Positions 6,297 through 61,675 of a stretch of DNA of 64,000 nt are shown here, piece by piece. This stretch comes from Owenia fusiformis (lineage: Eukaryota > Annelida > Polychaeta > Sabellida > Oweniidae): positions 14,404,150-14,468,149 of the forward strand of contig CAIIXF020000002.1 of assembly GCA_903813345.2 (NCBI GenBank), read 5' to 3'. The translations under genes and the position numbers were made by a program. Numbering within the stretch: the stretch's first letter is position 1; the number at the start of each line of letters is the position of its first letter. The notes below the pieces were generated by a model. That model worked only from the letters and a program-made list of their open reading frames with translations. It was not told the origin of the DNA and ran no database searches.

Positions 6297-6673
6297 CTAC
6301 TTATTTATCCTGTTGTGGACACTTTTCATATGTTGTCTCATATTGCTAATTACAGAAAATCTTTTGAGGCAGAGTTCACATTGGAAAGGTTTCTCTCCTG
6401 TATGGATTCGCATATGTACATGTAAGTTTGATTTCCTCTTGAACAATTTACCACAAAAGCTACATTTGTTGGTTTCAGGAAGAATAGACCTCACATTGTT
6501 GACAAGGTGACTGTTTTGATTTCCAATAGTGTCTCTATGGAAACTGTCACTGTGGATACTGTTGCTATATAAATTATCTCTTTGGATGATTCTGTCACTC
6601 TGGGTACTATCGTTATGATATTTACTGCTGAAGTAGCCATAATAAAGTTGTTCATCAGTTACTCCAAAGGCCT
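6297..6673 (-). CDS. locus A terminal exon 3b: two C2H2 zinc fingers
   Basis: Read on the minus strand, a polypyrimidine/AG acceptor (ttgtaatttcag) precedes base 6673, and 377 nt run open to TAG at 6299-6297. The exon begins with two bases of a split codon (phase 1), matching the phase-1 donors of exons 1 and 2 at 21.2-22.2 kb. About 70 residues of polar linker rich in S, D, H and N precede two classical fingers: CSFC-x12-H-x3-H, a TGEKP linker, then CELC-x12-H-x4-H. It ends five residues later. Finger 2 (QCELCLKRF) closely matches that of exon 3a, so the two exons are paralogous alternatives. Expected role: sequence-specific DNA binding in the nucleus. The exact target is unknown. Confidence 0.82.
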
Positions 6674-6974
6674 CTGAAATTACAACAAAAATGTCTAAAA
6701 TGTCTATCTTATCATATCTTATTTTATAGTGCTAAGTTATATATTTTATAATCGTAAGTAACTAGTTTGTTTATACATTTTTTAAGAGTCCTGCATCTGG
6801 GGTTAAAATTTTCCGGTTTTGCGCAAAAACATTCTTATGTGCCGTTCTTATATAACCTACTGTTCCCGTGCAGTCCTCGTGGATTATACTGTCTTACATG
6901 TTCTAATCATGTCAATATGCTCTCATTTCTTTTGACTTTTTCCTCATGTATAACACCATGTGCAGTTCTCATGT

Positions 6975-7567
6975 ACCACACAATTCTTATATAATGCTCC
7001 TTTCATGTACCACACTATTCTTATATAATGCTCCTTTCATGTACCACACTATTCTTATATAATGCTCTCATCTCATGTACCATGCTAGTCTTGAATTCTC
7101 TTCTCATGTACCATGCTAGTCTTGAATGCTTTTCTCATGTACCACACTTTTCTTGAATGCTCTTCTCATGTACCATGCTAGTCTTGAATGCTTTTCTCAT
7201 GTACCACACTATTCTTGAATGCTCTTCTCATGTACCATGCTAGTCTTGAATGCTTTTCTCATGTACCACACTATTCTTGAATGCTCTTCTCATGTTCCAT
7301 GCTAGTCTTGAATGCTTTTCTCATGTACCACACTATTCTTGAATGCTCTTCTCATGTACCACACTATTCTTGAATGCTCTTCTCATGTACCACACTATTC
7401 TTGAATGCTATTCTCATGTACCACATTATTCTTGAATGCTTTTCTCATGTACCACATTATTCTTGAATGCTCTTCTCATGTACCACACTATTCTTGAATG
7501 CTCTTCTCATGTACCACACTATTCTTGAATGCTCTTCTCATGTACCACACTATTCTTGAATGCTCTT
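6975..7567. repeat. 31-bp minisatellite, left block
   Basis: Tandem units of about 31 bp (plus-strand core catgtaccacactattcttg followed by aatgctcttct), with alternating variants 'accatgctagtc' and 'accacactattc'. Less regular copies extend a little to the left. The same array continues at 8547 after a LINE insertion. Confidence 0.9.
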
Positions 7568-8546
7568 GGGACTATCATACTAAAACAATGTTGTCAAACA
7601 ATGGTATTCCACTGATAATAATATTTCCTTACATGTAAAAACAACAATAAAACTTTTAAAGGACTGTTTCAATTCGAAAGATCCTTTCTTGAAAAACATC
7701 TGGGACGATAAAAATAATGTGCAAAATGGAAATAAGCTTCGAACTTATAGAATGTTCAAATATGGAGTTGTAACTGAATCTTATGTATCTAATAACTATA
7801 TTCCAAGACATCATAGAAGTATGCTTGCCAAACTGAGAACAGGTAGTCTCCTACTTAACATTGAGACTGGTAGATGGTCAAACATAGCATTGCAAGATCG
7901 AACTTGTAAATTATGTGATAGTAACACTATTGAAGATGAATTGCACTTTGCCATTCAATGTAAACATTACTCCAGCCTCAGATCACACTTTTACGAAACT
8001 GTTACAAACATTTTGACGCCACATATAAAAACAAATACCGACAATGATTTACTTCAATTTATTAGTCTCATGCATTCAAAATCAATTCAAAGGCAATGGG
8101 CTGCTCTCTTGCATAACATGTTTGTAAAGAGACAATTTGACCTTGAAAGGCTGACTGAAACATAATTATTTGTAATGTCCTAATGTAATGAATGTTTTAC
8201 CATATTCATTCGATTGAGTGCCTCATTACTTTTATACTATAATTTAACTCTAGTCAATTTAAAGAGGCAATATGTTACATGTTAACTCTTTCTATTTATT
8301 ATGTATATGAATTTATAATTATCAAACTTGTGCAATACTTGGGATAAATTGTTTTATTATACATTACTGATACGCATTGTCTACAGTCTGACAGTATATG
8401 CTTAATTTTCTTGCGATAATAATTCTATTTGGAAGTTAGTGACCAGTGTCTCATAAACCGACATCGGCTGGTGGTATCTTAACTATGTTCTTATATATGT
8501 ATTAATTGTATCATACCAGTGACACTTAGATAAAATATTTTAAACT
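7568..8546 (+). mobile_element. 5'-truncated LINE inserted in the minisatellite
   Basis: A 979-bp foreign block interrupts the 31-bp array, which resumes in the same register. The 9 bases AATGCTCTT occur on both sides (7559-7567 and 8547-8555), consistent with a target duplication, though they also belong to the repeat unit. The open frame 7600-8165 encodes a non-LTR reverse-transcriptase C-terminus with the zinc-knuckle CKLC...ELHFAIQCKHY. The fragment has no reverse transcriptase core. The 3' part (8166-8546) is non-coding and AT-rich. Confidence 0.8.
7689..8165 (+). pseudogene. LINE reverse transcriptase C-terminal fragment
   Basis: The frame is open upstream of this point to about 7600, so the apparent start is not a true one. 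Residues LRTGSLLLNIETGRW, then CKLC and ELHFAIQC, fit the tail of a CR1/L2/Rex-like LINE ORF2 rather than the Tx1-like copy at 4.2-5.7 kb. The catalytic FxDD region is missing. It is the only coding trace left by the insertion. Confidence 0.78.
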
Positions 8547-9755
8547 AATGCTCTTCTCATATATCACACTATTCTTGAATGCTCTTCTCATGAACCACAC
8601 TATTCTTGAATGCTCTTCTCATGTACCACATTATTCTTGAATGCTCTTTTCATGTACCACACTATTCTTGAATGCTCTTCTGATGTACCGTATGTTGTTC
8701 TTGTACTACACTTTACTAATTGATGTTCTGATATACCACACTATACTTGCACTGTCTCCTCCTAATGTCACCTCATCTATTACATTCTTATATGCTACAG
8801 TTTAATAAATTGTATAATTAATCTTTCCTCATGTTAATATGCCATTTATTTGTTTGAGCTTTCCTCATGCACCATTCTATTGTTATCTATCATTTTCATG
8901 TACCACACTTTTTCTATGAACTGTCCTCATGCACCACATTACTCTTATCCTGTTTTCATACCAAACTATTGCTATGCCCTCATATACCACACTATTTTTT
9001 AAATGTTGTTCTCATTTGTACCACACATTTTTCGCTGGTCCTCATCTAACACATTATTCATAAATGATGTTCTCAATTTGCCACACTACATCTGAGTGTA
9101 GCACACTTTTCATAAGTGATGATCTCATATATCACAATATTCATTCTTGCTCATGTGCCACACTTTTCCTAACTGGTGATCTCATGTACAATACTGTTCC
9201 CATCTGCCTAAAGGCTGTTCCTATATGCCACAATATAATGTTATCATGTACCACAATATGTATACATGCTGTTCTGTTATCCCACACTATTCTTATATGT
9301 TTATGCAATGCTGTTCTTATGTGCCAGATCATTTCTCAAGTGCCAATCCATTTCTAAATGCTGTTATCATGTACCACAATATGCTAAAGCACTGTTCCCA
9401 TGTTCCATTATATATGTCTAGATGCTGTTTTCATGTACAATAATAGATCTAAATGCTATTCTTATGTGCCACACTATTTCTCACGTGCTAAACAATTTCT
9501 AAATGCCTTTATCACACAATATGTCTAGGTACTGGTTTCATTTACCACAATACACATTTGACTAGGTGCACAGGTCTCATATACCACAATATGTCTTAAG
9601 TGCTCAGGTCTCATATACCACATAATGTCTAAGTGCTGGGACTCATGTCCCACAATATGTCAAAGTGTTGGTCTCGTGGACCACAATATCTCTAGATGCT
9701 GGTCTCATGGACCACAATATCTCTAGATACTGGTCTCAGATGCACCACAATATGT
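8547..9755. repeat. 31-bp minisatellite, right block decaying towards exon 3a
   Basis: After the LINE the array continues with clean units to about 8690, then as increasingly diverged copies (words 'ccacaatatgtct', 'tgctggtctcatg') right up to the stop codon of zinc-finger exon 3a. The last coding codons of that exon fit the repeat unit. Confidence 0.8.
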
Positions 9756-10033
9756 CTAAGTGCTGGTCTCATGTGTCACACTATTCTTATGTACTTTTTT
9801 CAGATGTGTCTTCATATTGCACTCAACAGTGAACCTCTTCAGACAGAGTCCACACTGGAAAGGTTTTTCACCAGTATGTACCCTCATGTGATTCTCAAGA
9901 TGTGCTGGTCGTTTGAATTGTTTGCTACACTTTGTACAATGATAGGGTCTGGGGTTGTTGTCTGGAATGTTAGCCAGGGACCATGAAGGTGTGGCATTGC
10001 TATGTGACCATGTGTCTCTGAAGTGATCCAGGT
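9756..10033 (-). CDS. locus A terminal exon 3a: two C2H2 zinc fingers
   Basis: On the minus strand the acceptor tttcattttcag precedes base 10033. The exon opens with two bases of a split codon (phase 1) and runs 92 codons to TAG at 9758-9756. A linker of about 35 residues leads to fingers CTKC-x12-H-x3-H, TGEKP, and CGLC-x12-H-x4-H. The core FKR...[23 protein letters not shown] is shared with exon 3b. The last residues ([10 protein letters not shown]) are translated from a unit of the minisatellite that continues downstream, so the C-terminus may have shifted through repeat growth. It is the terminal exon nearest to exons 1-2, with an 11.2-kb intron between. Predicted nuclear DNA-binding end of the locus A protein. 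Confidence 0.85.
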
Positions 10034-10165
10034 CTGAAAATGAAACAACTTGTGATCAGTCACAAAAATTCTGAAAATACTGATGAAATGTTGGATTATA
10101 CTCAAACAAATGTTGGATTATACTCAAACAAAAATAACTAGACAAACAGCAACTCCACAGAGTAG

Positions 10166-11594
10166 CAAATCCCACCGAACAAAACATGTTTTGATAAATA
10201 GCGGCCATATAGAATTTGAGCCAAATCCAATTATCAAAGATTATGTTTTTATGAAACATGGTTGCCATTTTGAAATTCATCTGTCATCTTATAGATTTCT
10301 TCTTTAGCATCTCCCAAGGCATCAGCATATAGAAATTAATCCAAATCTGTCAACTGGTACTTGAGTTATCAAGGATTACATGTTTAATGAAAAATGGTGG
10401 AGATTTCGATTTCTGCTTGAAAATTTCTTCTCAAGCAGAGCTCCTTTATCTCTAGGCATCAGTATATAAAATTTGAAGTAAATCCTTCCAATGGTATTTG
10501 AGTTACCAAATATTACCTTTTTTATGAAAATGGTAGCAATTTTGAAATTCAGCTGCCACTGGTATTGAGTTATCAATGATTACAGTTTTTTTTACAAAAA
10601 TGGTGGCCATTTTGAAAATCAGTGGCCATCTTGAAAATGTCTTCTTGAGCAGAACTTCTTTGTCTCTAGGCATCAGCATATAGAATTTGAACCAAATCCA
10701 TCAACTGGTATTTGAGTTATCAAAGGTTACATTCTTTTATGAAAAATGGCGGCCATTTTGAAATTAGCTCCCATCTTGAAAATCTCTTCTCAAGCAGAGC
10801 TCCTATGTACATAGGCATCAGCATGTAAAATTTGAACCAAATCTATTCAATGGTATTTAAGTTATCAAAGATAACGTTTTTTAACGAAAAATGGCCGCGA
10901 TTTTGAAATATGGCGGCCATCTTAAATAAGCCACACGGTGAACAGAATCGCACCCTTGAACAGAATACACTTTTCGGGATGGAAAATCCAAAATGGCCAC
11001 CTTAACATTTACCCAGAATGCCGAAAAAGTAATCATTTCTAAACTTTCATAGTTAGAAACATCCCTGCGAATTTCAAATGAATCCCTCAAACGGTTTGGC
11101 TGGAAACCTGTAGACAAGCCTTGACAGACAAGATTTTAGGACGGAAAATCCAAAATGGCCGCCTTAACATTTACCCAGAATTCCGAAAAACTAATAAGTT
11201 CTAAACTTTCATAGGTAAAAACATCCCTGAGAATTTCAAATGAATCCCTCAAACGGTTTGGCTGGAAACCTGTAGACAAGATTATTCGGGACGCCCGCCT
11301 GCCCAACCGCCCGCCAAACCGCCCGCCAAACCGCCCGCCCGCCAAACTGATTACAATATAGCACCTAAGGGTGCGATAAAAAGACTTCTTGAGCAAGGCT
11401 CTCTTGTACCCAGGCAACAGCATATAAAATTTGAACCAAATCCATCCACTAGTATTTGAGTTATCAAAGATTATATTTTTTCCGAAAAATGGTCGCCATT
11501 TTGAATTTAGGGCCATATTGAAAATTCCTTCTCGAGCAGACGGACGAACAGCTTTTCTATATCCCCCTCACAGTCAAACTTCGTTCGGTGGGAT
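10166..11594. mobile_element. repeat element with TCCCACCGAACGAAGTT-type ends
   Basis: The left end reads aatcccaccgaac and the right end ttcgttcggtgggat, an inverted pair. The inside is a tandem series of diverged roughly 135-150 bp units, each with 'catcagcatataaaatttga', 'gagttatcaaagatta' and 'atggcggccattttgaaa'. Within it lies a duplicated stretch of about 140 bp (10975-11115 and 11140-11280, 'ccctcaaacggtttggctgg') and a short ccgcccgccaaa repeat (11291-11345). The same end motif recurs at about 36000-36025 and related units at 14930-15130. Class unknown; no protein. Confidence 0.6.
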
Positions 11595-11717
11595 AAAAAG
11601 CTGTAAAAATGTTGCATTATAGTCTTGTATCAAGTCCTGGTATGGCTCCACTCTCCTTCACAAAAACACAATACTGTCTGTATAGGGAGGAAAGTAAAAA
11701 ACATAATAGGCATTATG

Positions 11718-11991
11718 TACGAGGGGTGATTCAAAAGTAATAGACAAAATTTTATAGGCATACTACGTATTAAACATTACCAAATCAGTCTAATTTTTGA
11801 CAGACATTAGATCATTCAGTGATCTACAATATGTAAGTGTCAAATTTTTATTTAACTGCATTTAATATTGTTTCAGCTATGCAAAACCATGGTAACTAGG
11901 GTAAGCATGGGCAGAATCTAGAGCTGGCATTGAATAGAATTTTCATGTGGACATGTCAGAGCTCTCGATCGACTATGACATCACCATGTTG
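11718..11991 (+). mobile_element. mariner-like left end, truncated
   Basis: Begins tacgaggggtgattcaaaag, which has the look of a mariner terminal repeat, and continues for about 270 bp with no partner end. It is cut off at 11992 where another repeat begins. Confidence 0.45.
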
Positions 11992-12268
11992 CAGGCCTGT
12001 CAACTGTCCCGCAATTTGCGTATTTGTCACGCATTTGCTGAAGAATTTGAAGTCACGCCAGTTATTTTTGCGTGACAGAAAATGTCACGCAAATACGCAT
12101 TTCACCTGGTTATTGTCAAGCAAAAATATTTCTGTAGAAAAATTTCTAAAAAAGATCGTCTACACAGCAAAAATACGAACGCCGGAAAAAAATGTACGCA
12201 TTTTGTTCGGACTTTTCACGCGAATTCCGTATATGTCACGCATTCCGTTCGAAATTTTTCTACCTACC
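11992..12268 (+). mobile_element. 'CAGGCCTGTCAACTG' element, copy 1, truncated at the right
   Basis: Starts with caggcctgtcaactgtcccg and carries the same interior as the copies at 15567, 25567 and 33104 (tgcgtatttgtcacgcattt, then gcgtgacagaaaatgtcacg). The right end diverges at about 12268, before the usual gttgacagccctg terminus. No coding capacity. Confidence 0.75.
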
Positions 12269-13121
12269 TGATTGTGTCATCATAGATGGCGTTACTGTAC
12301 AGCCTCGTTCTGAGTTATAAATAAAAGATGAAACAACATTTAAATTATTCTCTATTGTTTATTCCTCATTTCCACATAATTAGGGTAGTTTAGAAAATAC
12401 AACACCAAGAAAATGCATTTTCTTTGATTTTTGGGCTCCCAGAGGGTATACACATTTTTCACCAAGTGGCAGGATATACACATACCCTATCAATTTCCAC
12501 ATACTCAAATTGCCTTACTAAAGAAAACCTACTAAAAGTTTAGTGGTCAATAAATATCCGATCTGTTATTCCAAAATCAGAAGCGAATTGAATAATATAG
12601 ATTAGAATGCACAAATATATTATTGGCCAATGATTCAGGGGTTTCATCAGCAACAGGCAATTTTTACAAGTTGTTTTTAAAAAATTGCCTGTTGTTTTCA
12701 ATATAAAAAAAATCAAATTTTCTCTTAATTTTGAGAGTATGCAATGGCGTTTTTGCGTATACAATGCTACGCTATTGGCTGCACCGCCTTGTCATTTGCT
12801 AGCTTTGCCCCTACATAACCATATATTTGAGTCTACAGAATAGAAATAAGAGGATGGTTATTCAGTTGACTTTTGAAAAGGGTTAATTTTATTCTGTCTG
12901 CCTCATTGCAAAACAGGAATATCCCAGAATTCATACAGTCATACTTCACTTATGTAAACTATATCTTTGATTGGCCAAGGGTTCATCTATAATCCTGGGA
13001 AATGACCTCTTCTGAACGTAAAGCGTGGGAACATCTGATTTGACCAGTTCCCAGTGTGTCACCTGTCATTTCTCTGGAATTATGTACACTTTCATCCAAA
13101 AGATTGGAAACAATTGTAGTA
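12269..13121. other. no gene; contains the left arm of an inverted repeat pair
   Basis: 12384-12470 (agaaaatacaacaccaagaa, then 'gggctcccagagggtata') is the reverse complement of 15160-15256. The rest of this interval and 14835-14915 share segments with 31506-31745, so these belong to a dispersed, rearranged repeat family. Confidence 0.6.
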
Positions 13122-13321
13122 CAGTAAAACCTGTATATCTGAACACTTGGCTAATCTGAACACCTCCCAATTTGAACCTTTTTTTGTCCCGTTTTCCTCC
13201 CATTGACTCAAATGTTAAAAAACCTTGAAATGTGAACACCTCCCAATTTGAACAGTGAACAGTCATGTTTGAAAAGTTAACCTATCTAATCTGAAAATTT
13301 TTCATATAATATCACATGTTA

Positions 13322-14385
13322 CAGGGTGTTCAATAAGTATTGCTAATTTTGCTATAACTTTTGTTCTGTTTGTTTTTTCTTCATGAAACCTCCACAACAT
13401 AAGGTACATATATCTGACTTTATTCTTTGAAAGTTTCAAGACAATCGAATCAGTATTAACAAAGTTATGGTTACTAAGGTAACCAATATCATGGATATGC
13501 GGGGCAAATTTCTGACGTCACTTTGGACGACATTTTGAGTGTTGAAAGCAGTATCATTTCATGCCATTTAACTATTGGGATATGCAGTGCAGTTATAAAG
13601 AATCCATTCCAGAGTCACTTCGAAATTCATGATCCATATTAACTTCATGAGGTGCTCAAAATAGGCAGGCACCCTTAGCGTCAATGCACACTTGCTATCT
13701 GGCGACCCACTCGTGGTACACATTTTTGAAGCCACCCTTAAAGTGTGTGGCTCGGGAGGTGTTCACTGCAGACATCAGCTGATTGAGATTCTGGTGCGAT
13801 ATTCCTCTCAGGTCCCTTTTCACTGGGGCGAATACAACAAAATCAAGTGGGGCCTTATCTGGGAAATATGCTGAGTGGGGCAATGCTTCCATGCCAAGCT
13901 CTGTTATTGTATTTAGGAGAATAGAGGATCTGTGAGCAGGGGTGTTATCCTGGTGGACCGTATGGGTCGATATTGCTCTTTGAGAACGTTGAAGTGTGTG
14001 GCTAGGGATGCGCAGTGTTCACTGCAGACATTCGCTGATTGAGATTCTGGTGCGATATTCCTCTCAGATCTCTTCACCGCTGTTAGATAATACATATAAA
14101 TCAAACTGACAACATCAAGATTTGACCATATGAACAGTTTTTATTCATCAAAGTTTTTATTTGAGGTATAACAATAATTCATCATGTAAACCCTTAAGGT
14201 TGCCCCGCGTATCTGTGACAATGGTTACCATAGTAACCATAACTTTGTCAATACTAAGTCGCTTGTCCAGAAATTTGGAAAGGATAAGGTCAGTCATGTG
14301 TTGCTTATGTTTTTAAAGTTTCATGAAGAAATATGCAAGATAACAAAAGTTATAACAAAATTAGCAATACTTATTGAACGCCCTG
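13322..14385 (-). mobile_element. mariner element (DD34D type), degenerate
   Basis: Inverted repeats of about 190 bp (left cagggtgttcaataagtatt, right mirrored), with TA at 13320-13321 and 14386-14387. The minus strand encodes the catalytic half of a mariner transposase: HQDN with the second aspartate, exactly 34 residues, then the third aspartate in PDKAPLDF, so DD34D. The N-terminal half is missing and part of the C-terminal coding (about 13740-13812) is duplicated at 13985-14070. Inactive. Confidence 0.88.
13692..14104 (-). pseudogene. mariner transposase catalytic fragment
   Basis: On the minus strand the frame from about 13965 reads through HQDNTPAHRS to LPHSAYFPDKAPLDF, then VKRDLRG and HQNL. 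This is the C-terminal part of the DDE/D domain that cuts and pastes DNA. The first aspartate block and the DNA-binding domain are absent. The piece at 13985-14070 repeats the RDLRG...HQNL coding segment with frame damage. The one visible triad segment has the canonical spacing. Confidence 0.8.
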
Positions 14386-14651
14386 TACATACAAAATTGA
14401 TCAAATATTTGAAAAAACGTGAATGATCTCACTCATGGTGATGCTTTCTAGGATGAATAAATTCATTTGAATCAGATTTTCATGTCACTGTAATGCCAAA
14501 AAGCTATGTAGTCAACAGAACTATAAATATTTATTGAATTTGTTCCTATTTCTTCAAAATCCAAAATCTTGCAAATGCAAAACCTCAAAATGTGAATACC
14601 TCCTAATCCGAACGCTTTTAGCTGGTCCCTCGGATTAGATAGGTTTTACTG

Positions 14652-21215: not shown

Positions 21216-21527
21216 CTTGGTTTTGATCTGGCATGTCATCTATTGAGCTGTCTCCCTGCATCCAACTTGCACCTTCAGTAGACTCCTCATCATATCCCCC
21301 TTCCTTCTCTCCCTCATCTAGCTCTATGGTTATAGGCTCTTCTTGTTTAATATTGACAGTGTCCAAAATTGCACTTTCATCATGAGGACCTATATGTTGA
21401 TTATCAATGCCAGTAGTGTTAGTGTCGAGTCTGGCATGTTTATGAATTGGTTTACATGTAGGAGTATCTTGTGTTATATAATCTGATAGAGACCGCTTAA
21501 TGGCTCCAGGAGAAAGTGATGATTCCT
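21216..21527 (-). CDS. locus A exon 2: acidic, SUMO-motif linker exon
   Basis: 312 nt on the minus strand between acceptor ttgattattttcag (ending at 21528) and donor AAG|GTGAGA (after 21216). Both borders are phase 1, so the exon can be included or skipped without changing frame. It encodes 104 residues without cysteines in finger spacing: a polar start (SSLSPGAIKRSLSDY), then VNIKQEEPITIELDEGEKEGG, where IKQE fits the psi-K-x-E sumoylation consensus, then an acidic/serine stretch. Such acidic linkers between an N-terminal domain and fingers are common in transcription factors. Function is inferred from composition only. Confidence 0.75.
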
Positions 21528-21709: not shown

Positions 21710-22181
21710 CTTTTATTGTTAACCCTCCTATAGCTTCAATCCTTCCTCCTGGTGTAACTTGTGTGGCAGTAGGCAAAGGAGAGTTAACAGGTGTCTGAGA
21801 ATTGTAGAGATATTGATTAGGAGTTTGAGCTGTTGATACTATAGCTACAAGTCTATTTTCTCTGTTAGTAAACTCTCTGTTCCTCTGTGCAGGGTCATGA
21901 GAGGGTTTATATGGCAACTTTCTGGAGCTTTGATTACTACAATAATCAGAAGATGCTTCAATGTCTACTTGAGGTGACCAACTTTGTTGAATACCTTGAG
22001 ATTCAGCTGGTTTCATAATGGTTCTGTGCATTTTTACAACAATTTCCCGCTCTTTCTCTCCTGGAGAAACACATATAATGCCATCTATCTCTAGTGAGGT
22101 GTTGAAGACAATGTTCTGCGTACAAAGTTTGAGAACTGCATCCTGTATCAGTTGTGTTAATACATCAGTTGAGGAAACCAT
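21710..22181 (-). CDS. locus A exon 1: shared N-terminal domain of a zinc-finger protein
   Basis: Minus-strand ATG at 22181-22179, with an in-frame TGA ten codons upstream and no intervening acceptor, so this start is favoured. 157 codons plus one base run to the donor AAAAG|GTAAGT at 21710/21709 (phase 1). Residues 1-55 (MVSSTDVLTQLIQDAVLKLC, later LEIDGIICVSPGEKE and IVVKMHRTI) look like a compact alpha/beta domain. I do not recognise it as BTB, KRAB or SCAN. The rest is low-complexity Q/S/P/N sequence. The phase-1 donor fits exon 2 and exons 3a/3b, making a predicted protein of about 350-390 residues. Confidence 0.78.
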
Positions 22182-27162: not shown

Positions 27163-27950
27163 TTTTTTTATTAAAAAACTATATTTCAAATCAAAAACAT
27201 ATATACAGTACAATTAATACATTTACATATAAAGGTTACATGTTGTAAAATGATTTTTCCCTATTATCTATCATTTTCAAAGTTTCCTGCTCATTCAGCA
27301 GATCACATTTAAACATATGGATAGCTTTTTTTATAATCACACTTTTAAAATATTTTTCTTGTGCGAAATTTTCAATACCAAGTTTTTGTTTATCACTGAG
27401 ACAATTACAATCACAGGTGTTCCAAATATTTAAAACTTCTTTACACTTCACAAAATACATGAAATAGTGCATGTCATCATCAATTTCATTATCACAATAT
27501 TTACATTTATCTGAATCTTGTATTTTACACTGTTTTAGATATTTGCCACTTGGATAAATTTTATGGATAATCTTCCATTGGAAAATTTTGAGCTTATTAT
27601 CTTTTGTACAATTAAAAAGTGTGTTCCACACATCCTTACTTATCAATGTATTATCATATTTAATATCACATTTTCTTGCCAAGACTAACTCTGATCGTAT
27701 ATACTTTGAATCTGATTTACATAATTCTCTATTTACAAATCTCAAGTTGTTATTATTCTCTTCATCTCCATACTTTGTAATTAACTCTTGTTTAACACAT
27801 GCTTTTAAAATATTATACTGCAGCATGGTTTGTCAATTGCGCTGTACTTTTTGAACTATGAAATTATATGAACATAACATTCCATCTTTAACAATATCAT
27901 TTATATAAATTACATCATTTTCAATCCAATGTTTAAAAAATAATGGTCCC
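27163..27950 (-). mobile_element. 5'-truncated LINE (Tx1/L1-like)
   Basis: Minus-strand fragment. After the stop at about 27238 there is a short 3' region ending in AATAAA (27172-27167) and an A-run. The coding part resembles the 4.2-5.7 kb LINE (GPLFFKHWIENDVIYINDIV against its PIFFESWIKSGIIYIKDL), so both belong to one clade. The 5' end fades at about 27950. Target duplication unclear. Confidence 0.8.
27236..27948 (-). pseudogene. LINE ORF2 C-terminal remnant
   Basis: The frame runs from about 27948 through an in-frame TGA (27835-27833) to the stop at 27236. Residues KIFQWKIIHKIYPSGKYL, then CKYC and MHYFMYFVKC and NIW, form the terminal zinc-knuckle region. No reverse transcriptase core. 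Confidence 0.82.
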
Positions 27951-45071: not shown

Positions 45072-45076
45072 AATTT

Positions 45077-51627: not shown

Positions 51628-51636
51628 AAAACATGG

Positions 51637-52403
51637 AGCCCCACTTCTTATGGTATTTCATATGCAGCCTTGCTTAAGATTGTATTTCATATGTAGTCTT
51701 ACTTAAAATGGTATTTCATATGTAGTCTCACTTGACGTGACATTTCATACATATTGTATCACATGAGATGGTATTTCAAATCTCATTTTAGATGCATATG
51801 TAGCCTCTCTTGAAACAGTATACATGTACAATATGCAGTTTAACTTTAGATGCATATGTAGTCTCACTTTAGACATAGTATTTCATATCTAATCTCACTT
51901 TAGATGCATATGCAGTCTCACTTTAGACATAGTGTTTCATATCTAATCTCACTTTAGATGCATATGTAGTCTCACTTTAGACATAGTATTTCATATCTAA
52001 TCTCACTTTAGATGCATATGCAGTCTCACTTTAGACATAGTATTTCATATCTAATCTCACTTTAGATGCATATGCAGTCTCACTTTAGACATAGTATTTC
52101 ATATCTAATCTCACTTTAGATGCATATGTAGTCTCACTTTAGACATAGTATTTCATATCTAATCTCACTTTAGATGCATATGCAGTCTCACTTTAGACAT
52201 AGTATTTCATATCTAATCTCACTTTAGATGCATATGCAGTCTCACTTTAGACATAGTATTTCATATCTAATCTCACTTTAGATGCATATGTAGTCTCACT
52301 TTAGACATAGTATTTCATATCTAATCTCACTTTAGATGCATATGAAGTCTCACTTTAGACATAGTATTTCATATCTAATCTCACTTTAGATGCATATGCA
52401 GTC
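51637..52403. repeat. 54-bp minisatellite abutting a zinc-finger exon
   Basis: Unit of 54 bp (ctcactttagatgcatatgc, then agtctcactttagacatag and tatttcatatctaat). About ten near-identical copies lie at 51853-52400, with irregular units before. The last unit runs into the stop codon and final codons of the exon at 52404. Confidence 0.93.
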
Positions 52404-52813
52404 TCACTTGAGATGGTACTTCATATGTAGAGTTTTATTCTGCCTAGGGAATATCTTGCCACACAAGAGACACTTGAGGTCTCTACTGAGATGCAATTTA
52501 TATGTTGACTTCCCAGAGAACAATTTGAGGCAGTATTCACACTGTTGTGGCTTCTCTCCTGTGTGCTTCTTCCCATGGTTCAGCCGCTCTGCCTCATCCT
52601 CATTATCAAGGCGTCCCTGGCAGACATCACAATAGCCATTATGCACTACAATCACATGGTAATCTATGCATCTCTGAGAGGGGAATGCCATGCTACAAGT
52701 TGGACAGTGAAATGTCTCCTCATCAACTTCAACACAAACATCACCATGGATTTGGTTGACTGTAGATATCTTTGGGATGTGGGAGTGTTCAGTGATATGC
52801 TGCTCAGAGTATC
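52404..52813 (-). CDS. locus B terminal exon 5: four-module zinc-finger block
   Basis: The acceptor ccatgtacttgcag precedes 52813. Two bases of a split codon (phase 1), then 136 codons to the stop. Modules in order: CPTC-x12-H-x4-H (FPSQRCIDYHVIVVH), CDVC-x14-H-x3-H, CEYC-x12-H with no second His at finger spacing, then CLLC-x11-H-x3-H. The THTGEKP-like linker GKKHTGEKPQQC separates modules 2 and 3. The final residues HMKYHLK correspond to the minisatellite that follows. It is the member farthest from the presumed 5' exons, after a 1.5-kb mariner-type element in its upstream intron. Predicted nucleic-acid-binding end of a nuclear protein. Confidence 0.82.
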
Positions 52814-52938
52814 CTGCAAGTACATGGAAAACACACTTAAAACCAAAGTCGGATGACTGGCGTACATATTTGCAGGATGTGGTGTACAGTGTGACACAAA
52901 TAAGTGCCACTCACACATGTCACATACATCCATATATA

Positions 52939-54452
52939 CAGGGTGGTCCAAAAAAATGGGACACTCATATTTCAAAAATAAATATTGATTTTCTTGAGGA
53001 AAACATGACAAACATTGAGTGGATAGGGAATTTACTTATCTTTCATTTGGTATTCCATGAGTTCAAATGTATTATAATGTCTGTCAACCAACATCGATAA
53101 TATAGATGACATCATTTTCATTTCGAAACAGGTTTTCCGAAACTTGCAAAAACCATGTTTTTTGTCAACTTGATTTACATAAACAGACTCTCAATATGTC
53201 CACCATTTTGATCAGTTAAATAGCCCTCAATTTTGACCTAAACTGGTCAAATGCATCATTGACATGCTGTTGAGACAGTAAATTCGACTTCTTAATAATT
53301 CTGTCCTTAAGGGACTGTCCGACTAAGTAGATGTAAGGGGTTCATGATAAACCAATATCCCAGATGCATGTAGAAATAATCTTGATTTACGTCATTAAAA
53401 ATTCACAATTCAGTCAAACTGATGTCATATTTGGAATCTACATGTAAAATTACATTTAGAAATGTGGTTTTGAAAAGAGTTTATCAACTTTGAAAATTTA
53501 ATTTTCTTTGAAAATGTGACTTCTAGGTCGGGGAGATTCCCTTAGACCCCATGTTGTAAAACCACAAAAAGTGAAATATCTTTTCTTGTGTTGGGCAGAT
53601 AATATTTTCTTTTACTGGACATGTTTTAATTTGTATAAGTCTCAGATGCATAAGGGTAATATGAAAAGTGAACCACTCGAACTGATGCATATTCAAGTTT
53701 AAGGGAATATTGTAATACCCTGCCATGTTAATTCCCCTGAATCAGCCACCTGGTGGCGAAACTGATAACTTCCTACTCGCATCTGAGTAATTCTGTTAGT
53801 TCTCCAAATATGCGGTAGTCGCAGATGTTGACTTCGGATGATCCAATTATGTTGTTTTAGACCATCCTGATATGAGCTCATTTTCGAATCATTACATTTT
53901 CTAACAAGATGGGGCTCCAAGCAATAGAGAGTGTCAAGAGTGTCAAATGTTTAAACGAAAATGTGCCTAGATTCACCCCCCCCCCCCTTAATCACTGCCT
54001 CGCCCAGATCACCCGATTACGGGATCACCTGACCACGTATGGGGAGGACTGACAGAATCGGTTTACCATAAATCCTTAAGATCTATTCAGCCCCTTAAGG
54101 ACAGGATTATTGAGAAGTGAAATTTATTGTCTCAATAGCATATCAATCAAGGCTAAAATTGAGGGCAACAATTGATCAAAATGGTGGACATATTGAAAAT
54201 CTCTTTATGTAAATAAAGTTGATAATAAAACTTGGTTTTTGCTAGTTTTGGAAAACCCGTTTTGAAACGAAAATGACATCATTTATATTATGGACGCTGG
54301 TTGACAGACATTATAATAAATTTGATCTTATGATATACCAAATTAAAGATGAGTAAATTCCCTATACACTGATATATAGTATGACATGTTTTCATCAAGA
54401 AAATCAACATCTATTTTCGAAATACGAGTGTCCCATTTTTTGGACCACCCTG
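52939..54452. mobile_element. Tc1/mariner-type element with ~330-bp inverted repeats
   Basis: Ends cagggtggtccaaaaaaatg and the mirrored ttttggaccaccctg, TA on both sides (52937-52938 and 54453-54454). The arms extend to 'ccaccattttgatcagtt' on the left and its complement near 54180. No transposase recognised in the centre. Lies in a locus B intron. Confidence 0.85.
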
Positions 54453-54454
54453 TA

Positions 54455-55389
54455 CATATGGCTGCATCCAGTTGAGCTAGTCATCTGAAACTTCTTGTGG
54501 AGTTGCTCCATGGTTTTATCCATTTGATGGGGAAAAGTAAAAAGTAATATTGTAAAATTTGTTGAAAAAACATAACAAACATAGTTTGAATTGCTTAGAA
54601 TGCACCATATACAATATAAATATTTTTAAATTCACGGGGATGAAACCCCCAGGCTCGCTACACTCCAAGTGATGCAAACCAAAAATTCCCGCCCCCTGAC
54701 ATTTGCTGGATACGCCCATGTAATTTTTATTAAACAAACATAAAAGTTGATCGTTAATAATTTTTGAGTTAACAATGCACTTGCAAGGTTAAATAATCTA
54801 TGTTTTATATATATTGATGGGAAATAGCAGCTTTACAGGTGAACACTTCATGATGCAGTACGTAAAGCATACTATTTATAATTTAAAACGTCTTTGGTGG
54901 AGAAATAAATTCATGCTTATCAAATCACTTAATCATACTTCAGGAAGAAACATTAGTTTATGTTGAAATGCCCATTGAAAGTCAAATGTGGTTTAAAAGG
55001 ATCACCCATTGCATTAATATGAATTCTGCTTCAATGAATATTTAACAAAGGAAATAAAGGGAATAGAGGAATTGAAAAATTGAAACCATTTTACAATATT
55101 TTCCATGTACGTGTACTTTTCTAAAACATCTGACAGTATTGTCTCTAATTTTTGACTAAAAGGCTGATCTGCATGATGAGAATTTTTTTCAATTTTGAAA
55201 AATGCGGTAGTTTTATGGTAGATTTAAATAAAATGCGGTAGTTTTTACAGTAGATTTAAAAAACTGATTTTGCATAGATTTTGACACACTTCAATGAATA
55301 AATAATAAAGTATGTTTTTCTTACACACTATTCATGATCTTTCATAAACGGACTAACAATTTGAACACATCAGTTTTTTTATAACTACA
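54455..55389. other. no gene seen; intronic
   Basis: AT-rich sequence between locus B exons; nothing supported. Confidence 0.5.
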
Positions 55390-55880
55390 GTAGAACCTGT
55401 GGTAGTTGAACACTGTGTTTTTGCATCATGATACTCTCCAGTGTGTTGACTGATTACACACCAGCTTACTTAGTTACTTACTAAGTACGCAATAACCACT
55501 GTCACAGACATGCCGACACATATTTATTTTTGGGTTGGTAATGGAATATTACAAAGGCAATACAGGATCTGGGAAGACTTCAATTTTACAGAATTTCCAA
55601 ATAATAATGGTAGATTTTACGGTAGTTTGAACAAGAATACTGTTAATTTCAGCAGAAATATGGTAGATTTTCAAATATTTACGGTTTATTTTACAGCTGT
55701 TCTTATAGAAAAAATCGAATTATAATAAAATATCTTACGGTAGATTTCGCTAAAATTACTGTAGATTTTTTACGGTCGTTTTTATGAGAAAATATGGTAA
55801 TTTGTCTTTTTTTACGGAAAAACAAAAATTTTACGGTAGATTCCCGTAAAATTATGGTAGGTTGGCAGGTATGATCTATA
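55390..55880 (-). mobile_element. MITE with ACCTGCCAACCTACCAT ends, copy 2
   Basis: Inverse copy of 28355-28840: 'cttacttagttacttactaa' on one side, 'taggttggcaggtat' on the other, and 'tacggtagattt' words between. Confidence 0.75.
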
Positions 55881-56373
55881 TATTCTAAAGAAAATTTATC
55901 ACTATAGCACCTTTTGTGCAAAAATGAAAGATATAGACCGTGAAACTTGAATAAGGTAGGAATCTATTGTAATTAGGATCCAAGTATGTAATATCACAAC
56001 ACATAAACATAAAATAAATGGGAGTTGACCACTGACGTATAAGACTAAGAAAAATTTAGAGTTGGGTGGGAAATAAGTGTTACTGAAGAAGTAAGCAAAT
56101 TGTGAATGAAAAATTATCAAAGTAATTTATTCCAAGTAGTGTTACAAATACACAGTAATAGTGTTTAGTACCAGAAAACTTATATTTGTGTAATTTATAA
56201 TAATGTCATCAATATTACTTTGTGAATGTTCATTGTCCAATAATTTGAGTCTGATGTTTGAAATGTCTAAATAATATTATTTCTGTTCAATAATAAATGT
56301 TGCTTTGTATGATTTGATCATTAAACTGTTTAGCTTGACTAATCTGTGTATGTGCAAGTACAGAGTTAAGTGT
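55881..56373. other. 3' side of locus B exon 4
   Basis: AT-rich, presumed 3' untranslated region of the exon ending at 56374. Confidence 0.45.
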
Positions 56374-56804
56374 TCATTGTGTATAGTGGTATGTGTTCAT
56401 ATGATGCTGCCTGGCACCTTGCTGCAATCTCTTGCCACATATTTTACATACAAAATTTTTAGAGAGGTGTATCTTCAATCCAGTCTTAGATTGGAAAACT
56501 TTATAGCATTTCGTACACTGGTGTGGCTTCACACCCTTATGTTGTCTCCCATGTTCTAGGAGCTCACTGTGCTCTAGGTGGTCAAGTCGATTATTGCAGA
56601 TATCACAGAATTTGTTGTGTACTACGGCAAGATGGTAATCCAAGCATTGCTTAGTAGGAAATGGGCCACACTGGGGACATGTGTTGTCACTTTGTTCCTC
56701 CTCTGGCTCTGGGAGCTCTCCTGTTGGTGCACTGGTCTCTATGTAAACACTTTGTTGGCTTTGATTGACAGGCTTCCCATACTGGGCAGCATTGAATTCC
56801 ATCT
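56374..56804 (-). CDS. locus B terminal exon 4: four-module zinc-finger block
   Basis: Acceptor ctcaattaatttcag, phase-1 entry, 143 codons to the stop. About 40 residues of acidic/polar linker (ELPEPEEEQSDNT) precede CPQC with x12-H-x4-H (one residue shorter before FPTKQCLDYH), CDIC-x14-H-x3-H, CTKC-x12-H without the expected second His, and CKIC-x11/12-H-x4-H at the end (HHMNTYH). The DYHxxVVHNKFCDIC core is shared with the other four exons. The linker is KGVKPHQC rather than TGEKP. Most diverged in the last module (CKICGKRL against CLLCG). An in-frame ATG sits two bases inside the exon, but the conserved phase-1 border argues for splicing. Confidence 0.82.
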
Positions 56805-58988
56805 CTGAAATTAATTGAGAAATTTTAGGAAAAGTATTTTATTTAGTGAATAAAAGATGGTGTGAATCCAAAGAAGCGGGTGCATAATATTGCATCAAGG
56901 TAAGTCGGGAGCGCATTGTGTTTTTTAAAGAGAAAAGGTAGATTATTTCTTATGTTGTAAATCTGAGTCTTTATAATGAACAATGCTTATTATAAAGCAG
57001 ATGTATCAAACTATATGAATTATATTTTATGTTGTATATACTTTTGTTTGTATATGCATTTTGTTGATCTTGTAAGATGAATTTTAATGCTCTATATTAA
57101 AAAATGAGGGTTATGCATGTATGTACTGGGAGGTTTTGGATATGGGGTTTACCAGAGGGAGATCGCATATCTACCTGTGAGACCGAAGGTAGATGTGCAT
57201 ATCTCACGAGGGATAAAATTCTTTATCCCATGGTTGCATGGATATAGATCGAATATCACATGAAGATATATTTAATATGTGGATCTAGATATCATATTTT
57301 AGCAAAAAATTCACAAACCATCAAATATCACTTTTAAACTTTCGTATATCATGTCTTAAAAAGTGATATTCGATGGTTTGAAAAGTGATATTCGATGATT
57401 TCGAATTTTTTCAAAAAAAATTATTTTCAAAAATATTTTTAAAAATTTTTCAACATTTTTTCACAATTGTTTCAGTTATTTTTCAAATTTTTTCTCAAAT
57501 TATATTTTTCAACTTTTTTTCGCTGATGATGATTTCTCATGGGATAAACAGACAATCCTATGGTTTTTCAAAAATATCAATTACATCCACTCATGGATAC
57601 AAATATCTTCACTCATTCGCTGCGCTCAATCTTGAAGATATCAATATCCACTCTTGGATATAAATGATATTTTTTCAAAACCATAGGATATTGCTATAGT
57701 TTCGAAAATTTTCAAATTTTTTTCAACTTTTATTCAAAATTCTTTTTCAATTTTTTTTCAAAGCGGGAAGATATGCCCAGGAGCGGGAGATATGGTGGGA
57801 GATATGGAGGTTCTGGATATGGAAACCTCAAAATCAGAATATGCGACATATCCTACCAACTTATCTCCCTAAAACTCTACTGGGCATAGGATAAATGTTA
57901 TTATATGCTGTATATTAGTTGGGGAATGTCTCTAGTATGCTATAAAATGAACGTTTAGGATGTATGTCTGAATAGCTTATATTTAATACTGTATTTTTAT
58001 ATTTTATGCTGTACATGGTGTTTCATATTGCTGAAGATGTACTTTGCTGCAAAACTGAAACATATGGATGATGTACTGTATTTCCATATTTTATACTGTG
58101 CATGCCATTTACTCTGAAGGTAGAACTTCACTGTCCATTGCGCAGTTAGTTCGCGCATCTCTAATGCCAAAAACTAAAACTAAATAAAACATTGATACTT
58201 GTTTATATGAAAAATTTCATTTGATTGATCAAATGCCGTGTGGCGCAATCTGATGGTGTTATTGTTTTATTTAGCCTGCGGGTGAAAAAACAAAATTGCA
58301 TAATTGGTTTGATTTAGAACTTTCGGGTCACCCAAATAGCTACGCGAAATGTATCATTGGAAAGTATTGACCAATCAAATTTTGTCCTTTTTGAGGGTTT
58401 TTTAAGTTGATAATTCCGTACCTTCTCAATTCAAGAGCGAACCACGAAAAGCTTAATTTGGGCATGATAATGAGAGCCTGGAATAGGCTTTTTGAAAAAA
58501 TAAATGTGGAGTTTGCTGTATAGTTTTGTTGAATATAATAGAAAAAGTCCCATGCTGTTCAGAATTAAAAAATGTATAACATGTTTTTGTATGATAAATG
58601 CATTATAACATGATGTAGAGTGTGATATATTAAATTAATCACCACTCAGAAAAATATATATATTTTATCCCTCGAGGTGATATTTCAATATATCACCCCC
58701 TCCACCATGCAATAATGCTATGATATCTTTCACATAGAAAATCTAAATTGAAGAAAAAAAGTCAATCGACAGTGAAGTTCATCTTAAAAATACAATTAGC
58801 TAAAAATGCATCTCATGTTTTTATCCCTATTAGCCTGAAAATGTATTCTTAAATAAGGTATTTATTTGTTAACTATTTAAATGTCAATGTTTGAGAAACA
58901 ATATGATTATCCATTAATGGTACAGGTAACTGATTGTTACAATTTTACTGATTGTTACAATTTAAAAAAAAAAATTCTGGGACTCATT
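56805..58988. other. intron of locus B; palindromic repeat region
   Basis: No exon seen. 57110-57860 is rich in inverted words (ggagatcgcatatc, gtgatattcgatggtttg and mirrored forms, 'cccatggttgcatggatat') and may be a foldback element with 'tgggaggttttggatatgg'-like ends. 57400-57500 is T-rich. Confidence 0.5.
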
Positions 58989-59458
58989 TCACTTTTGTTT
59001 ATGCTGCTTCATGTGACCCCATTTTCCAGTTTTTATAAAGCGAGCCCCACATAATAAACACTGCAAGTCATTAGCCAGATGAACACTCAAGCCATTCTTA
59101 GTCTGAAAGAGTTTATAGCAATGTTGGCACTGGTGAGACTTCATTCCAGTATGTGATTGGCCATGTGTCAATAGCTGCTCTTCTCCAAGGTGATCAAGTC
59201 TCATATTACAAACATCACAGTATTTATTATGCACAACCGTTGAGTGATAATCCAGACACCGTTGAGTAGGGTACTCAATGCTGCATTTCACACATGCATA
59301 TATATCCTCCACTTCAACAGGGTCAGGGAGATTTTCTAGTGAGTATTGAATATCAGATGTTTCCAGTGTTGATCCACATTGTTTCCCCATTGTGGAACCT
59401 TTTTGTTTCATCCATTTATCACCAGTGTTTTGTGGATATCTGTTGGTCCAATCCAAGT
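58989..59458 (-). CDS. locus B terminal exon 3: four-module zinc-finger block
   Basis: Acceptor tgtttgtatctgcag, phase-1 entry, 156 codons to the stop, the longest of the five. A 55-residue linker including ENLPDPVEVEDIYACVKC leads to module 1 (C-x2-C-x12-H-x4-H with YPTQRCLDYHSTVVH), module 2 CDVC-x14-H-x3-H, linker HTGMKSHQC, module 3 CQHC-x12-H lacking its second His, module 4 CLLC-x11-H-x3-H. It is the copy closest to the family consensus in module 3 (CYKLFQTKNGLSVHLANDLQC). 'LPDPVEVE' echoes LPDPIELE in exon 2 of the array, so the linker is also paralogous. Confidence 0.84.
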
Positions 59459-59616
59459 CTGCAGATACAAACATTGCAATTGTAGTTATTGAGTTTTCTC
59501 ATTTGAATATTTACTAATCAACATCAGTTTAACAGAACATTATACAACAAATCCGTTTCAATTTTATTGATTGTGATAACACATATTTTCATGTCACAGA
59601 TAAGCATTCAAATTTT

Positions 59617-59790
59617 AAATGAGTATGATAGTCATCTGGTATATCATTCATAGAGTATGATAGTCATCTGGTATATCATTCATAGAGTATGATAGTCATT
59701 GATATTTTATAGTCATCCAGTATACCATAGAGTATAATAGTCATATATTATATCATAATTGATAGTTATCGAGCGTATGATAGAGTATAA
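59617..59790. repeat. ~33-bp tandem repeat
   Basis: Unit 'agagtatgatagtcatctgg' plus tatatcattcat, two perfect copies and about three diverged ones, in the intron between two locus B exons. Confidence 0.85.
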
Positions 59791-60115
59791 TAATGGTTTA
59801 TCACAGAAGACATATCATATACACAGTCTATGAAAAAAACAGTAAGTAAAGTTATAGATATACATGTATACAAGATTATTGAGGACATATTTCTTGTTTT
59901 ATGATCATACATAGAAATGTTTGTTAGCTACAGAGTGACTCCTTTTGTTTATACATTAATTGACAAATTGCATGGTTTATATTGTTGAATTATAAATGTC
60001 TATAATTAATAATTTTCTTGGTTTTCTATTTTTATGATTTCAGATGCACAGTACATTCTGAGAATAACAAAGAAGCTTTCCTTTAGAGAGAAATCAGGCA
60101 AAACTGGTGGTCGGG

Positions 60116-60528
60116 TTACATGTTTTTCATATGAGCTCTCATATGTTTGCTCTTTTCATTCCTTCGTAACGTTTTACTGCAAATAAGACATTTGTAGTCC
60201 TTCCACAAGTGAGATTTCAGGCTAGTTTCTGCATTAAACAGCTTATAACAGGCATTACACTGTGCTGCTTTCTGGCCAGTATGCTGAAGGGGATGTTGTT
60301 CCGGATCAGCCTCTTTGTCAATTCTGCCATTACACATATCACAGAACCTGTTATGTACAATCTGCTGGTGATAATCTACACAACGGGGGCTTGGGAATAC
60401 CTTCCCACACACCGAGCAATTGTAATCTTGCTCCAATTCTATTGGGTCAGGTAGGCCAGCACTGTTACATTGTGGGTAATCCTGTGCTACAGGAACTCCT
60501 GATTGCGACTCATAGTTGGCCAATATGT
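60116..60528 (-). CDS. locus B terminal exon 2: four-module zinc-finger block
   Basis: Acceptor cactttctacttctag, phase-1 entry (AC ATA TTG), 137 codons to the stop. Linker with GLPDPIELEQDYNC, then CSVC-x12-H-x4-H (FPSPRCVDYHQQIVH), CDMC-x12-H-x3-H (two residues shorter than most), linker HTGQKAAQC, CNAC-x12-H without second His (HLWKDYKC), and CLIC-x11-H-x3-H. The KP of the usual linker is KA here. No ATG is needed at the start because the exon is joined by splicing. Confidence 0.82.
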
Positions 60529-61289
60529 CTAGAAGTAGAAAGTGGAATTTATTTATCTAGTGTATCATAAGTGGCAGTTACTGTAACATTTAGACTAGAA
60601 TATCCATCTAGGTAGTATTTGGTGCACAGAAGCAATTCAGGTGAGATTAATAATGCTTTAGAGATGCATGTATACTATGTTTGGCCCACTCTGTGTTATG
60701 TACATGTATTTTAAGGCCTGCACTAATGCATGGTTTTGGTGTGATCCCTGGAAGGAAGGAAGGGACCAATTGAAAAGTTCAATGAAGGAGAGGTAACTAT
60801 ATTTTAATAGTTAACTGACTCAAATACCCCCCCTAGACACTCTGCATTTTTGAGACAGACAATATATTCTGCCCACTCCCATCAGATATGATATATTCCC
60901 GAGTGTCATCTTACCCAAACCCATATAAGTATGAGATATCACAACTTGAATGTCATCCCATTATGCCAATGGTTGCCTTTAGTTGTAATCTGTAAAGTAG
61001 CCCTATTACATAAAAATATGTTGGTGGGTATATTGCTTATAGGAATGTAACTAACTCAACATGAATCTGGTGTTTGTTTTTAAACGTTCAGTTCTTTGTT
61101 CAACTTTATTAGTTTTAAACATCTGACCCACATCTGTCTAACAATATCTGCAAATTAATTTGTGATCTATCAGCTCAGTGCATTTCAGTACATTTCTTTC
61201 ACACCTCACTGTCTATTCATTTTCCAGAATGTGTATTATCCATTCATTGTTTTGCACTACATGTACCATTCAAATAATGTAGCAAAGTC
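60529..61289. other. intron/3' region between locus B exons
   Basis: No further exon recognised; includes presumed 3' untranslated sequence of the exon ending at 61290. Confidence 0.45.
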
Positions 61290-61675
61290 TTAGCGATGAT
61301 AATGCTTAAAATGTTGGTTCTTTTGACCTCTCTGGAACTGTCGTCCACAGAGCAGACATTTTAAGTCCTTGGCAACATGTGCACTTATGCCACTAACCCC
61401 TGCAAACAATTTGTAGCATATATAACACTGATAGGGCTTCAGTCCAGTATGTTGCTGTCCATGATGCGTGACATCTAGATCATCATCAATTCTATGGCCA
61501 CAGACATCACAGAATTTGTTGTGGACCACCATTTTGTGGTAATCTAGGCAACGTGGGCTTGGGAACAGATTGGAGCATTGTGGGCAAGGGTAGTCATCTG
61601 TAAGTTCTTTAGTGGCTTCATCTGTTGACTTTAGGCCCAAAGTGACATTGTGTCGCGTATTAATCGTGTATCCTC
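61290..61675 (-). CDS. locus B terminal exon 1: four-module zinc-finger block
   Basis: Acceptor gtattttctaatgcag, phase-1 entry (GA GGA TAC), 128 codons to the stop. After about 30 linker residues: CPQC-x12-H-x4-H (FPSPRCLDYHKMVVH), CDVC-x12-H-x3-H, linker HTGLKPYQC, CYIC-x12-H with K-D-L where a second His should be, CLLC-x11-H followed by HxxxxH-like HFKHYH. Nearest the presumed upstream exons beyond 64 kb. Each exon in the array ends in its own stop, so only one can be used per mRNA. Binding target unknown. Confidence 0.84.

What the first reader, a model, noticed from the sequence alone, without database searches (positions are those of the whole stretch)
6297..61675. Seven zinc-finger terminal exons that all share one splice phase: a lola-like exon-choice locus pair
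Each of the seven minus-strand zinc-finger exons (6673, 10033, 52813, 56804, 59458, 60528, 61675) starts after an AG acceptor with exactly two bases of a split codon and ends in its own stop. Both upstream exons of locus A end in phase-1 donors. Known precedents are lola and mod(mdg4) in insects, where common 5' exons are joined to one of many zinc-finger 3' exons. Here the shared N-terminal exon is not a recognisable BTB domain, so this may be an independent and undescribed version.
Basis: partly seen in the sequence, partly recalled or inferred. Interest (0 to 1): 0.88.

Follow-up and report, generated by a model that had tools for sequence, protein, structure and literature searches.

The report
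Zinc-finger exon arrays, annelid chromosome
In what is probably an annelid worm's genome, one shared first exon appears to be spliced to one of many zinc-finger last exons, and this layout recurs along one chromosome, so a few genes could make many different DNA-binding proteins; no RNA was seen.

Summary
All seven zinc-finger (ZF) exons begin with two bases of a split codon and end in their own stop. Locus B's predicted N-exon exists 12.9 kb beyond the window: homologous to locus A's, phase-1 donor, two more ZF exons in between. Locus A continues left with three more ZF exons.

The N-domain occurs at 51 places (E<1e-3), 45 on this chromosome. Nine loci were read, some arrays not to their far ends. 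Each has one N-exon and 5-22 ZF terminal ORFs (84 in all); 76 of 84 best acceptors are phase 1, against 81 of 248 for control ORFs. At least 18 of the 45 places head two or more ZF exons. Measurable close exon pairs show purifying selection.

The ~58-residue N-domain has no Pfam match, BTB included. Best reading: a lola-like constant-exon/variable-terminal-exon system with an unnamed N-domain, multiplied along one chromosome. Splicing itself was not observed. One antisense sub-array is probably a scaffolding error.

The parts
21710..22181 (-). Locus A exon 1, coding part (N-domain, ATG at 22181), phase-1 donor after 21710
21216..21527 (-). Locus A exon 2, 312 bp, symmetric 1-1, acidic, NIKQEEPITIEL motif
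9756..10033 (-). Locus A ZF terminal exon (2 fingers, A-type), to stop
6297..6673 (-). Locus A ZF terminal exon (2 fingers, A-type), to stop
61290..61675 (-). Locus B ZF terminal exon (B-type), to stop
60116..60528 (-). Locus B ZF terminal exon (B-type), to stop
58989..59458 (-). Locus B ZF terminal exon (B-type), to stop
56374..56804 (-). Locus B ZF terminal exon (B-type), to stop
52404..52813 (-). Locus B ZF terminal exon (B-type), to stop. Locus B's N-exon (C2:14480864-about 14481421) and two further ZF exons lie beyond base 64000

Best explanation
Each locus is one transcription unit with a constant 5' part: exon 1 carrying a conserved ~58-aa N-domain, plus in A-type loci an acidic exon 2. 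An array of alternative terminal exons follows, each encoding a different C2H2 zinc-finger module with its own stop. The constant part ends after one base (G) of a split codon and the terminal exons mostly begin with the other two bases, so they can be joined in frame one at a time; a mature mRNA can hold only one, because each ends in a stop. The product is a transcription factor with one constant N-terminal domain (probably for protein-protein interaction) and one of many DNA-binding ends. SHOWN: anatomy, phase, homology, one N-exon per locus read, recurrence on the chromosome, purifying selection on close pairs, tandem exon duplication within loci. INFERRED: that splicing joins them, that the choice is regulated, that it occurs in cis, that the N-domain is an interaction domain.
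For: Phase-1 acceptors in 76 of 84 ZF ORFs against 81 of 248 controls; phase-1 majority in 9 of 9 loci. The top-scoring N-exon donor is phase 1 in 8 of 9 loci. One strong N-exon hit per locus, upstream of and on the strand of its array, apart from the 35.35 Mb sub-array. Of 166 merged C2 ZF places, 127 have a same-strand N-exon upstream within 60 kb and 18 have one downstream; random placement gives mean 6.3, maximum 17. No in-frame ATG before the first finger in 22 of 76 phase-1 exons, 5 of 7 in the window. dN/dS 0.16-0.55 in the 23 measurable of 30 close pairs, all 30 within one locus. ZF exons cluster by locus on a tree of 54 B-type exons: 16 changes against at least 26 in 500 shuffles.
Against: No RNA evidence. 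Eight of 84 best acceptors are not phase 1: five have a phase-1 site within about 3.3 bits; 1361723, 5359429 and 35318443 have none that is usable; and 5356122, counted as phase 1, has a very poor site (-3.6). At 19.8 Mb the top donor is phase 0 and phase 1 comes second; at 0.87 Mb the top phase-1 donor lies inside the N-domain and only a weaker phase-1 site lies after it. My weights favour G at both sides of the junction, so the G-start of the split codon is partly built in. Poly(A) signals after the stops are hardly enriched, 0.73 against 0.62 of random stretches within 500 bp. 54 of 76 phase-1 exons do have an in-frame ATG before the fingers. 22 of 45 C2 N-domain places had no listed ZF exon within 100 kb; the ZF searches scored only 150 candidates each, so some arrays may be unseen, but some copies may have none.
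Confidence: 0.8

Rival explanations
1. mod(mdg4)-like trans-splicing: ZF exons are transcribed from their own promoters and joined to a separately transcribed constant RNA, possibly also across loci, since the junctions share one phase.
For: The same prevailing phase in nine loci; mod(mdg4) and lola precedents (PMC12692577 and PMC11426971, passages seen). An apparent opposite-strand sub-array of 12 ZF ORFs lies at C2:35.35-35.37 Mb.
Against: Apart from that sub-array, the arrays read lie on the strand of their N-exon. The sub-array sits in a block of exactly 25,000 bp between runs of exactly 5,000 and 500 N, which fits a contig placed in the wrong orientation.
Confidence: 0.12
2. Each ZF exon is an independent small gene with a private 5' exon, and the shared phase is only inherited from tandem duplication.
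For: B-type exons are homologous, so phase could be inherited; 54 of 76 have an in-frame ATG before the first finger.
Against: 22 of 76 have none; no second strong N-exon hit in any array read; A-type, B-type and most odd exons share the phase although their finger modules differ (1361723 is an exception).
Confidence: 0.08
3. Most ZF exons are decaying duplicates; only one or two per locus are used.
For: One truncated frame at 35318443 and some weak acceptors; a related copy elsewhere on C2 (7681627) with a stop inside.
Against: 61 of 61 B-type matches at E<1e-14 have no internal stop; dN/dS below 0.6 in 23 of 23 measurable pairs; in 33 B-type exons picked by a motif, ligand positions not required by the motif are also invariant.
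Confidence: 0.07

Closest known systems
lola (longitudinals lacking), Drosophila
   Same: Constant 5' exons joined to one of many 3' exons; 17 of 20 isoforms carry different C2H2 ends (PMC11426971, passages).
   Different: BTB transcription factor locus; that paper reports TTK-type BTB domains only from Arthropoda. Here the N-domain has no BTB match. lola is one locus; here at least 18 arrays lie on one chromosome.
mod(mdg4), Drosophila
   Same: Constant exons plus alternative 3' exons, over 30 isoforms (PMC12692577, passages).
   Different: Most of its isoforms carry FLYWCH domains (PMC11426971), not C2H2; it uses trans-splicing with exons on both strands. The only opposite-strand sub-array seen here is best explained as a scaffolding error.
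Clustered protocadherins (mammals)
   Same: Tandem variable exons and shared constant exons (recalled; only listings seen).
   Different: Reverse order: variable exons first, constant exons last; adhesion proteins, not transcription factors (recalled).
KRAB-, ZAD- and SCAN-type zinc-finger gene clusters
   Same: Lineage-specific expansion of clustered zinc-finger genes with an N-terminal effector domain (recalled).
   Different: Those clusters repeat whole genes (recalled); here one N-exon precedes 5-22 ZF exons. No KRAB, ZAD or SCAN match in Pfam.

Membership tests
lola / mod(mdg4) BTB loci | N-terminal BTB domain in the constant part | tested here: not met
   Pfam scan at E<=1: no BTB match for N-exon A or for any of 12 N-domain sequences; PF00651 finds 146 places elsewhere in this genome. 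By sequence only; no usable structure model
lola / mod(mdg4) BTB loci | One constant 5' exon set upstream of many terminal exons | tested here: met
   9 of 9 loci read, anatomy only
lola / mod(mdg4) BTB loci | Junctions in one phase | tested here: met
   76 of 84 best acceptors phase 1, top donor phase 1 in 8 of 9 loci
lola / mod(mdg4) BTB loci | Variable exons encode different zinc-binding modules with own stops | tested here: met
   C2H2-type Pfam matches for the six window exons scanned, some below the curated cut-off; motif and stop for 84 ORFs
lola / mod(mdg4) BTB loci | Transcripts joining one constant part to each variable exon | not testable with these tools
   no RNA data held
mod(mdg4)-type trans-splicing locus | Variable exons on both strands | tested here: inconclusive
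   Only the 35.35 Mb sub-array, inside an N-bounded 25,000-bp block
KRAB/ZAD/SCAN zinc-finger gene clusters | KRAB, ZAD or SCAN domain at the N-terminus | tested here: not met
   no such Pfam match at E<=1

The most novel reading that the evidence does not exclude
The chromosome carries a combinatorial transcription-factor system: dozens of constant exons with one new interaction domain, some 150 or more interchangeable zinc-finger terminal exons, and one prevailing splice phase, so that constant and variable exons could be mixed by trans-splicing even between loci, giving a repertoire far larger than the gene count.
Probability: 0.12. Interest if true: 0.92.

Novelty: new variant of a known kind. 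Interest (0 to 1): 0.7.

Why it matters
lola and mod(mdg4) are called exceptional loci among Drosophila BTB genes, and their BTB type is reported as arthropod-specific (PMC11426971, passages). An unrelated N-domain with the same exon-choice layout, repeated along one chromosome of a probable annelid, would be an independent origin of the strategy in another phylum, and would turn 'why is lola unique?' into a comparison with many replicates. It also bears on how zinc-finger repertoires grow: here by duplicating terminal exons rather than only whole genes. If annotation keeps one isoform per gene, most of these exons would be missed (inference).

Tried and rejected
Trans-splicing with antisense exons, suggested by the 35.35 Mb sub-array: set aside as evidence, because the block is exactly 25,000 bp between runs of exactly 5,000 and 500 N. 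Structure prediction of the N-domain (one sequence) and of a B-type ZF module (five window sequences) gave mean pLDDT 59 and 53; I drew nothing from them and ran no fold search. PDB searches with the N-domain: no match, one chance-level match at E 0.78. NCBIfam gave nothing relevant. Poly(A) signals did not discriminate. Diversifying selection at DNA-contact positions: in 33 aligned B-type exons, fingers 1-2 are conserved and fingers 3-4 vary at some helix positions, but position 3 of finger 3 is nearly fixed Gly; no clear signature, so not claimed. Finger numbering and contact positions are recalled, and the 33 were picked by a motif that itself fixes some ligands.

Literature: ten searches. 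Searches found no paper. The rows listed in the others (12 of 8,404; 10 of 749; 4 of 4; 12 of 57; 1 of 1; 6 of 4,092; 4 of 4; 12 of 21) show no such system outside insects by title and start of abstract. Passages were seen in four papers. Most subscription papers and all preprints are outside the library.

Rows dropped: one chance plus-strand frame (19783849) was left out of the ZF set, and frames under 45 codons were not considered. For one search I left out C2 ZF hits in long frames or conventional multi-finger clusters (0.725-0.735, 23.8-24.3, 28.6-28.9 Mb and singles), all hits off C2, and N-domain hits with E>1e-3. One search repeats the strand control with the left-out C2 rows added back (25 merged places, 8 with an upstream N-exon within 60 kb). 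One search tested only pairs sharing at least 22 four-residue words (30 pairs); 7 of them gave no dS.
Full report
WHAT WAS CHECKED. The window is C2:14404150-14468149 of a 498-Mb genome. All seven ZF exons start after an AG with exactly two bases of a split codon and run in frame to their own stop. In locus A, exon 1 (ATG at 22181) has a phase-1 donor after 21710, and exon 2 (21527-21216, 312 bp) is symmetric 1-1.

LOCUS B'S MISSING EXON. A search with N-exon A found it at C2:14481024-14481371, minus strand, 12.9 kb past the window edge, 59% identical over 104 aa, in a 216-codon frame with a phase-1 donor scoring 9.7 bits. Two more ZF exons of the same type lie between it and the window, so locus B has one N-exon and seven ZF exons. 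Locus A continues to the left with three more two-finger exons (C2:14402386, 14400966, 14394975), so at least five; I did not read further left.

A FAMILY ON ONE CHROMOSOME. The N-domain was found at 51 places with E<1e-3 (of 61 listed); 45 are on C2, which is 7% of the genome. One of the six others (contig C483) has the same score as a C2 copy and may be a haplotype copy. The B-type ZF module gave 61 matches at E<1e-14, all on C2, in clusters, none with an internal stop; the next match has E 1.5e-7. I read nine loci: 0.87, 1.37, 5.39, 7.51, 14.42 (A), 14.48 (B), 14.49 (C), 19.8 and 35.37 Mb. The far ends were set by the hits, so arrays may run on; at 19.8 Mb two listed hits lie outside the stretch read. 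Each locus gave one strong N-exon hit; one further hit in all (E 0.026) looks like chance. ZF ORFs number 6, 7, 16, 6, 5, 7, 7, 8 and 22. From the hit lists, 18 of 45 C2 N-domain places have two or more ZF exons downstream on the same strand within 100 kb, and 23 have at least one. These are lower bounds, because each ZF search scores 150 candidates. Control: of 166 merged C2 ZF places, 127 have a same-strand N-exon upstream within 60 kb and 18 have one downstream; random placement gives mean 6.3, maximum 17.

PHASE. A position-weight scorer, blind to phase, chose the best acceptor of each of the 84 ZF ORFs: 76 are phase 1, 7 phase 0, 1 phase 2. The same procedure on 248 other ORFs gave 71/81/96 for phases 0/1/2 and weaker sites (median 5.7 against 9.1). 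With scores of 7 or more the count is 66 of 73. The top N-exon donor is phase 1 in eight of nine loci and second in the ninth; at 0.87 Mb the top site falls inside the N-domain, so the true donor there is probably the weaker phase-1 site after it. The split codon would be Gly in 55 of 76 exons if the donor base is G; my weights favour G there, so this is partly built in. Exon 2 has homologues at 1.374 Mb (E 4e-10) and 19.797 Mb (E 5e-5), and a doubtful one at 9.70 Mb (E 0.08). The first two and exon 2 of locus A share NIKQEEPITIEL. By eye, both homologues keep a phase-1 donor, and the 1.374 Mb one a phase-1 acceptor. The motif fits a SUMO-acceptor consensus by recall; untested.

SELECTION AND HISTORY. 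Of 30 close ZF-exon pairs, all within one locus, 23 gave a measurable dN/dS, between 0.16 and 0.55: tandem exon duplication under purifying selection. On a tree of 54 B-type exons, locus labels change 16 times against at least 26 in 500 shuffles. Loci 5.39 and 35.37, and B and C, nevertheless share some exon lineages, so arrays were also copied as wholes (branch supports not examined). N-exons B and C (head to head, about 10 kb apart) are 92% identical over 495 bp, whereas the ZF exons of locus C are 43-50% identical to the one locus-B exon used as query. The constant exon was either recently copied or homogenised by gene conversion while the variable exons diverged; which of the two is not settled.

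WHY PRIVATE GENES ARE UNLIKELY. No second strong N-exon hit occurs within any array read. In 22 of 76 phase-1 exons, and 5 of 7 in the window, no in-frame ATG lies between acceptor and first finger, so they need an upstream coding exon or a non-ATG start. For the other 54 a private start remains possible.

WHAT THE N-DOMAIN IS NOT. No Pfam family reaches a meaningful score for N-exon A or for any of 12 N-domain sequences, BTB included; PDB and NCBIfam give nothing convincing. Outside C2, a C1 copy is followed by two ZF exons and a C7 copy by one seven-finger exon within 10 kb; C10 and C11 copies sit in frames without fingers in the 1.6-2 kb read. A conventional one-N-one-ZF form therefore seems to exist, perhaps the ancestral state (inference).

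AN ARTEFACT EXPOSED. At 35.35-35.37 Mb 12 ZF ORFs lie on the strand opposite to the N-exon, which would recall mod(mdg4). They sit in a block of exactly 25,000 bp bounded by runs of exactly 5,000 N and 500 N. A misplaced scaffold block is the simplest reading; I do not count it as evidence for trans-splicing, and it remains untested.

ORGANISM. Probably the annelid Owenia fusiformis. Histone matches form two large clusters and one small one (C8, C11, C10), as reported for that species (35, 29 and 4 canonical genes; PMC12153100, passages), though the chromosome numbers there are 5, 8 and 7. This is inference, not identification.

COMPARISON AND VERDICT. It works like lola: constant exons, many C2H2 terminal exons, one prevailing phase. 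It is not a member of the lola/mod(mdg4) family, since the BTB domain was tested by sequence and not found. It differs in N-domain, in phylum (if the organism is right) and in number of loci. Novelty: new variant of a known kind.

Noticed in passing
C2:35348609-35373608 (outside the window): Block of exactly 25,000 bp between runs of exactly 5,000 and 500 N, holding 12 ZF ORFs in the opposite orientation: likely scaffolding misorientation.
   Followed up: partly
C2:14480887-14481381 and 14491743-14492237 (outside the window): Head-to-head N-exons of loci B and C are 92% identical over 495 bp although their ZF exons are strongly diverged: recent copy or gene conversion of the constant exon.
   Followed up: partly
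51843-52413, 9573-9773, 6966-7567, 8547-8689: Minisatellites lie at or downstream of the 3' ends of ZF exons; the 54-bp unit at 51843-52413 abuts the stop of the last locus-B exon and resembles its final codons.
   Followed up: partly
1449-2380: 36-bp minisatellite, 26 copies, open in several frames; probably not a gene.
   Followed up: no
4346-5578, 7584-8165, 27236-27832: ORFs that look like C-terminal remnants of non-LTR retrotransposon proteins (recalled resemblance, no search run).
   Followed up: no
contig C483:69390-69665: N-domain match with the same score as C2:17912994-17913269, perhaps an unmerged haplotype copy.
   Followed up: no
C2:33050546-33051481 and C11:12129468-12131000: Frames with two tandem copies of the N-domain and no zinc finger in the stretch read.
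   Followed up: partly
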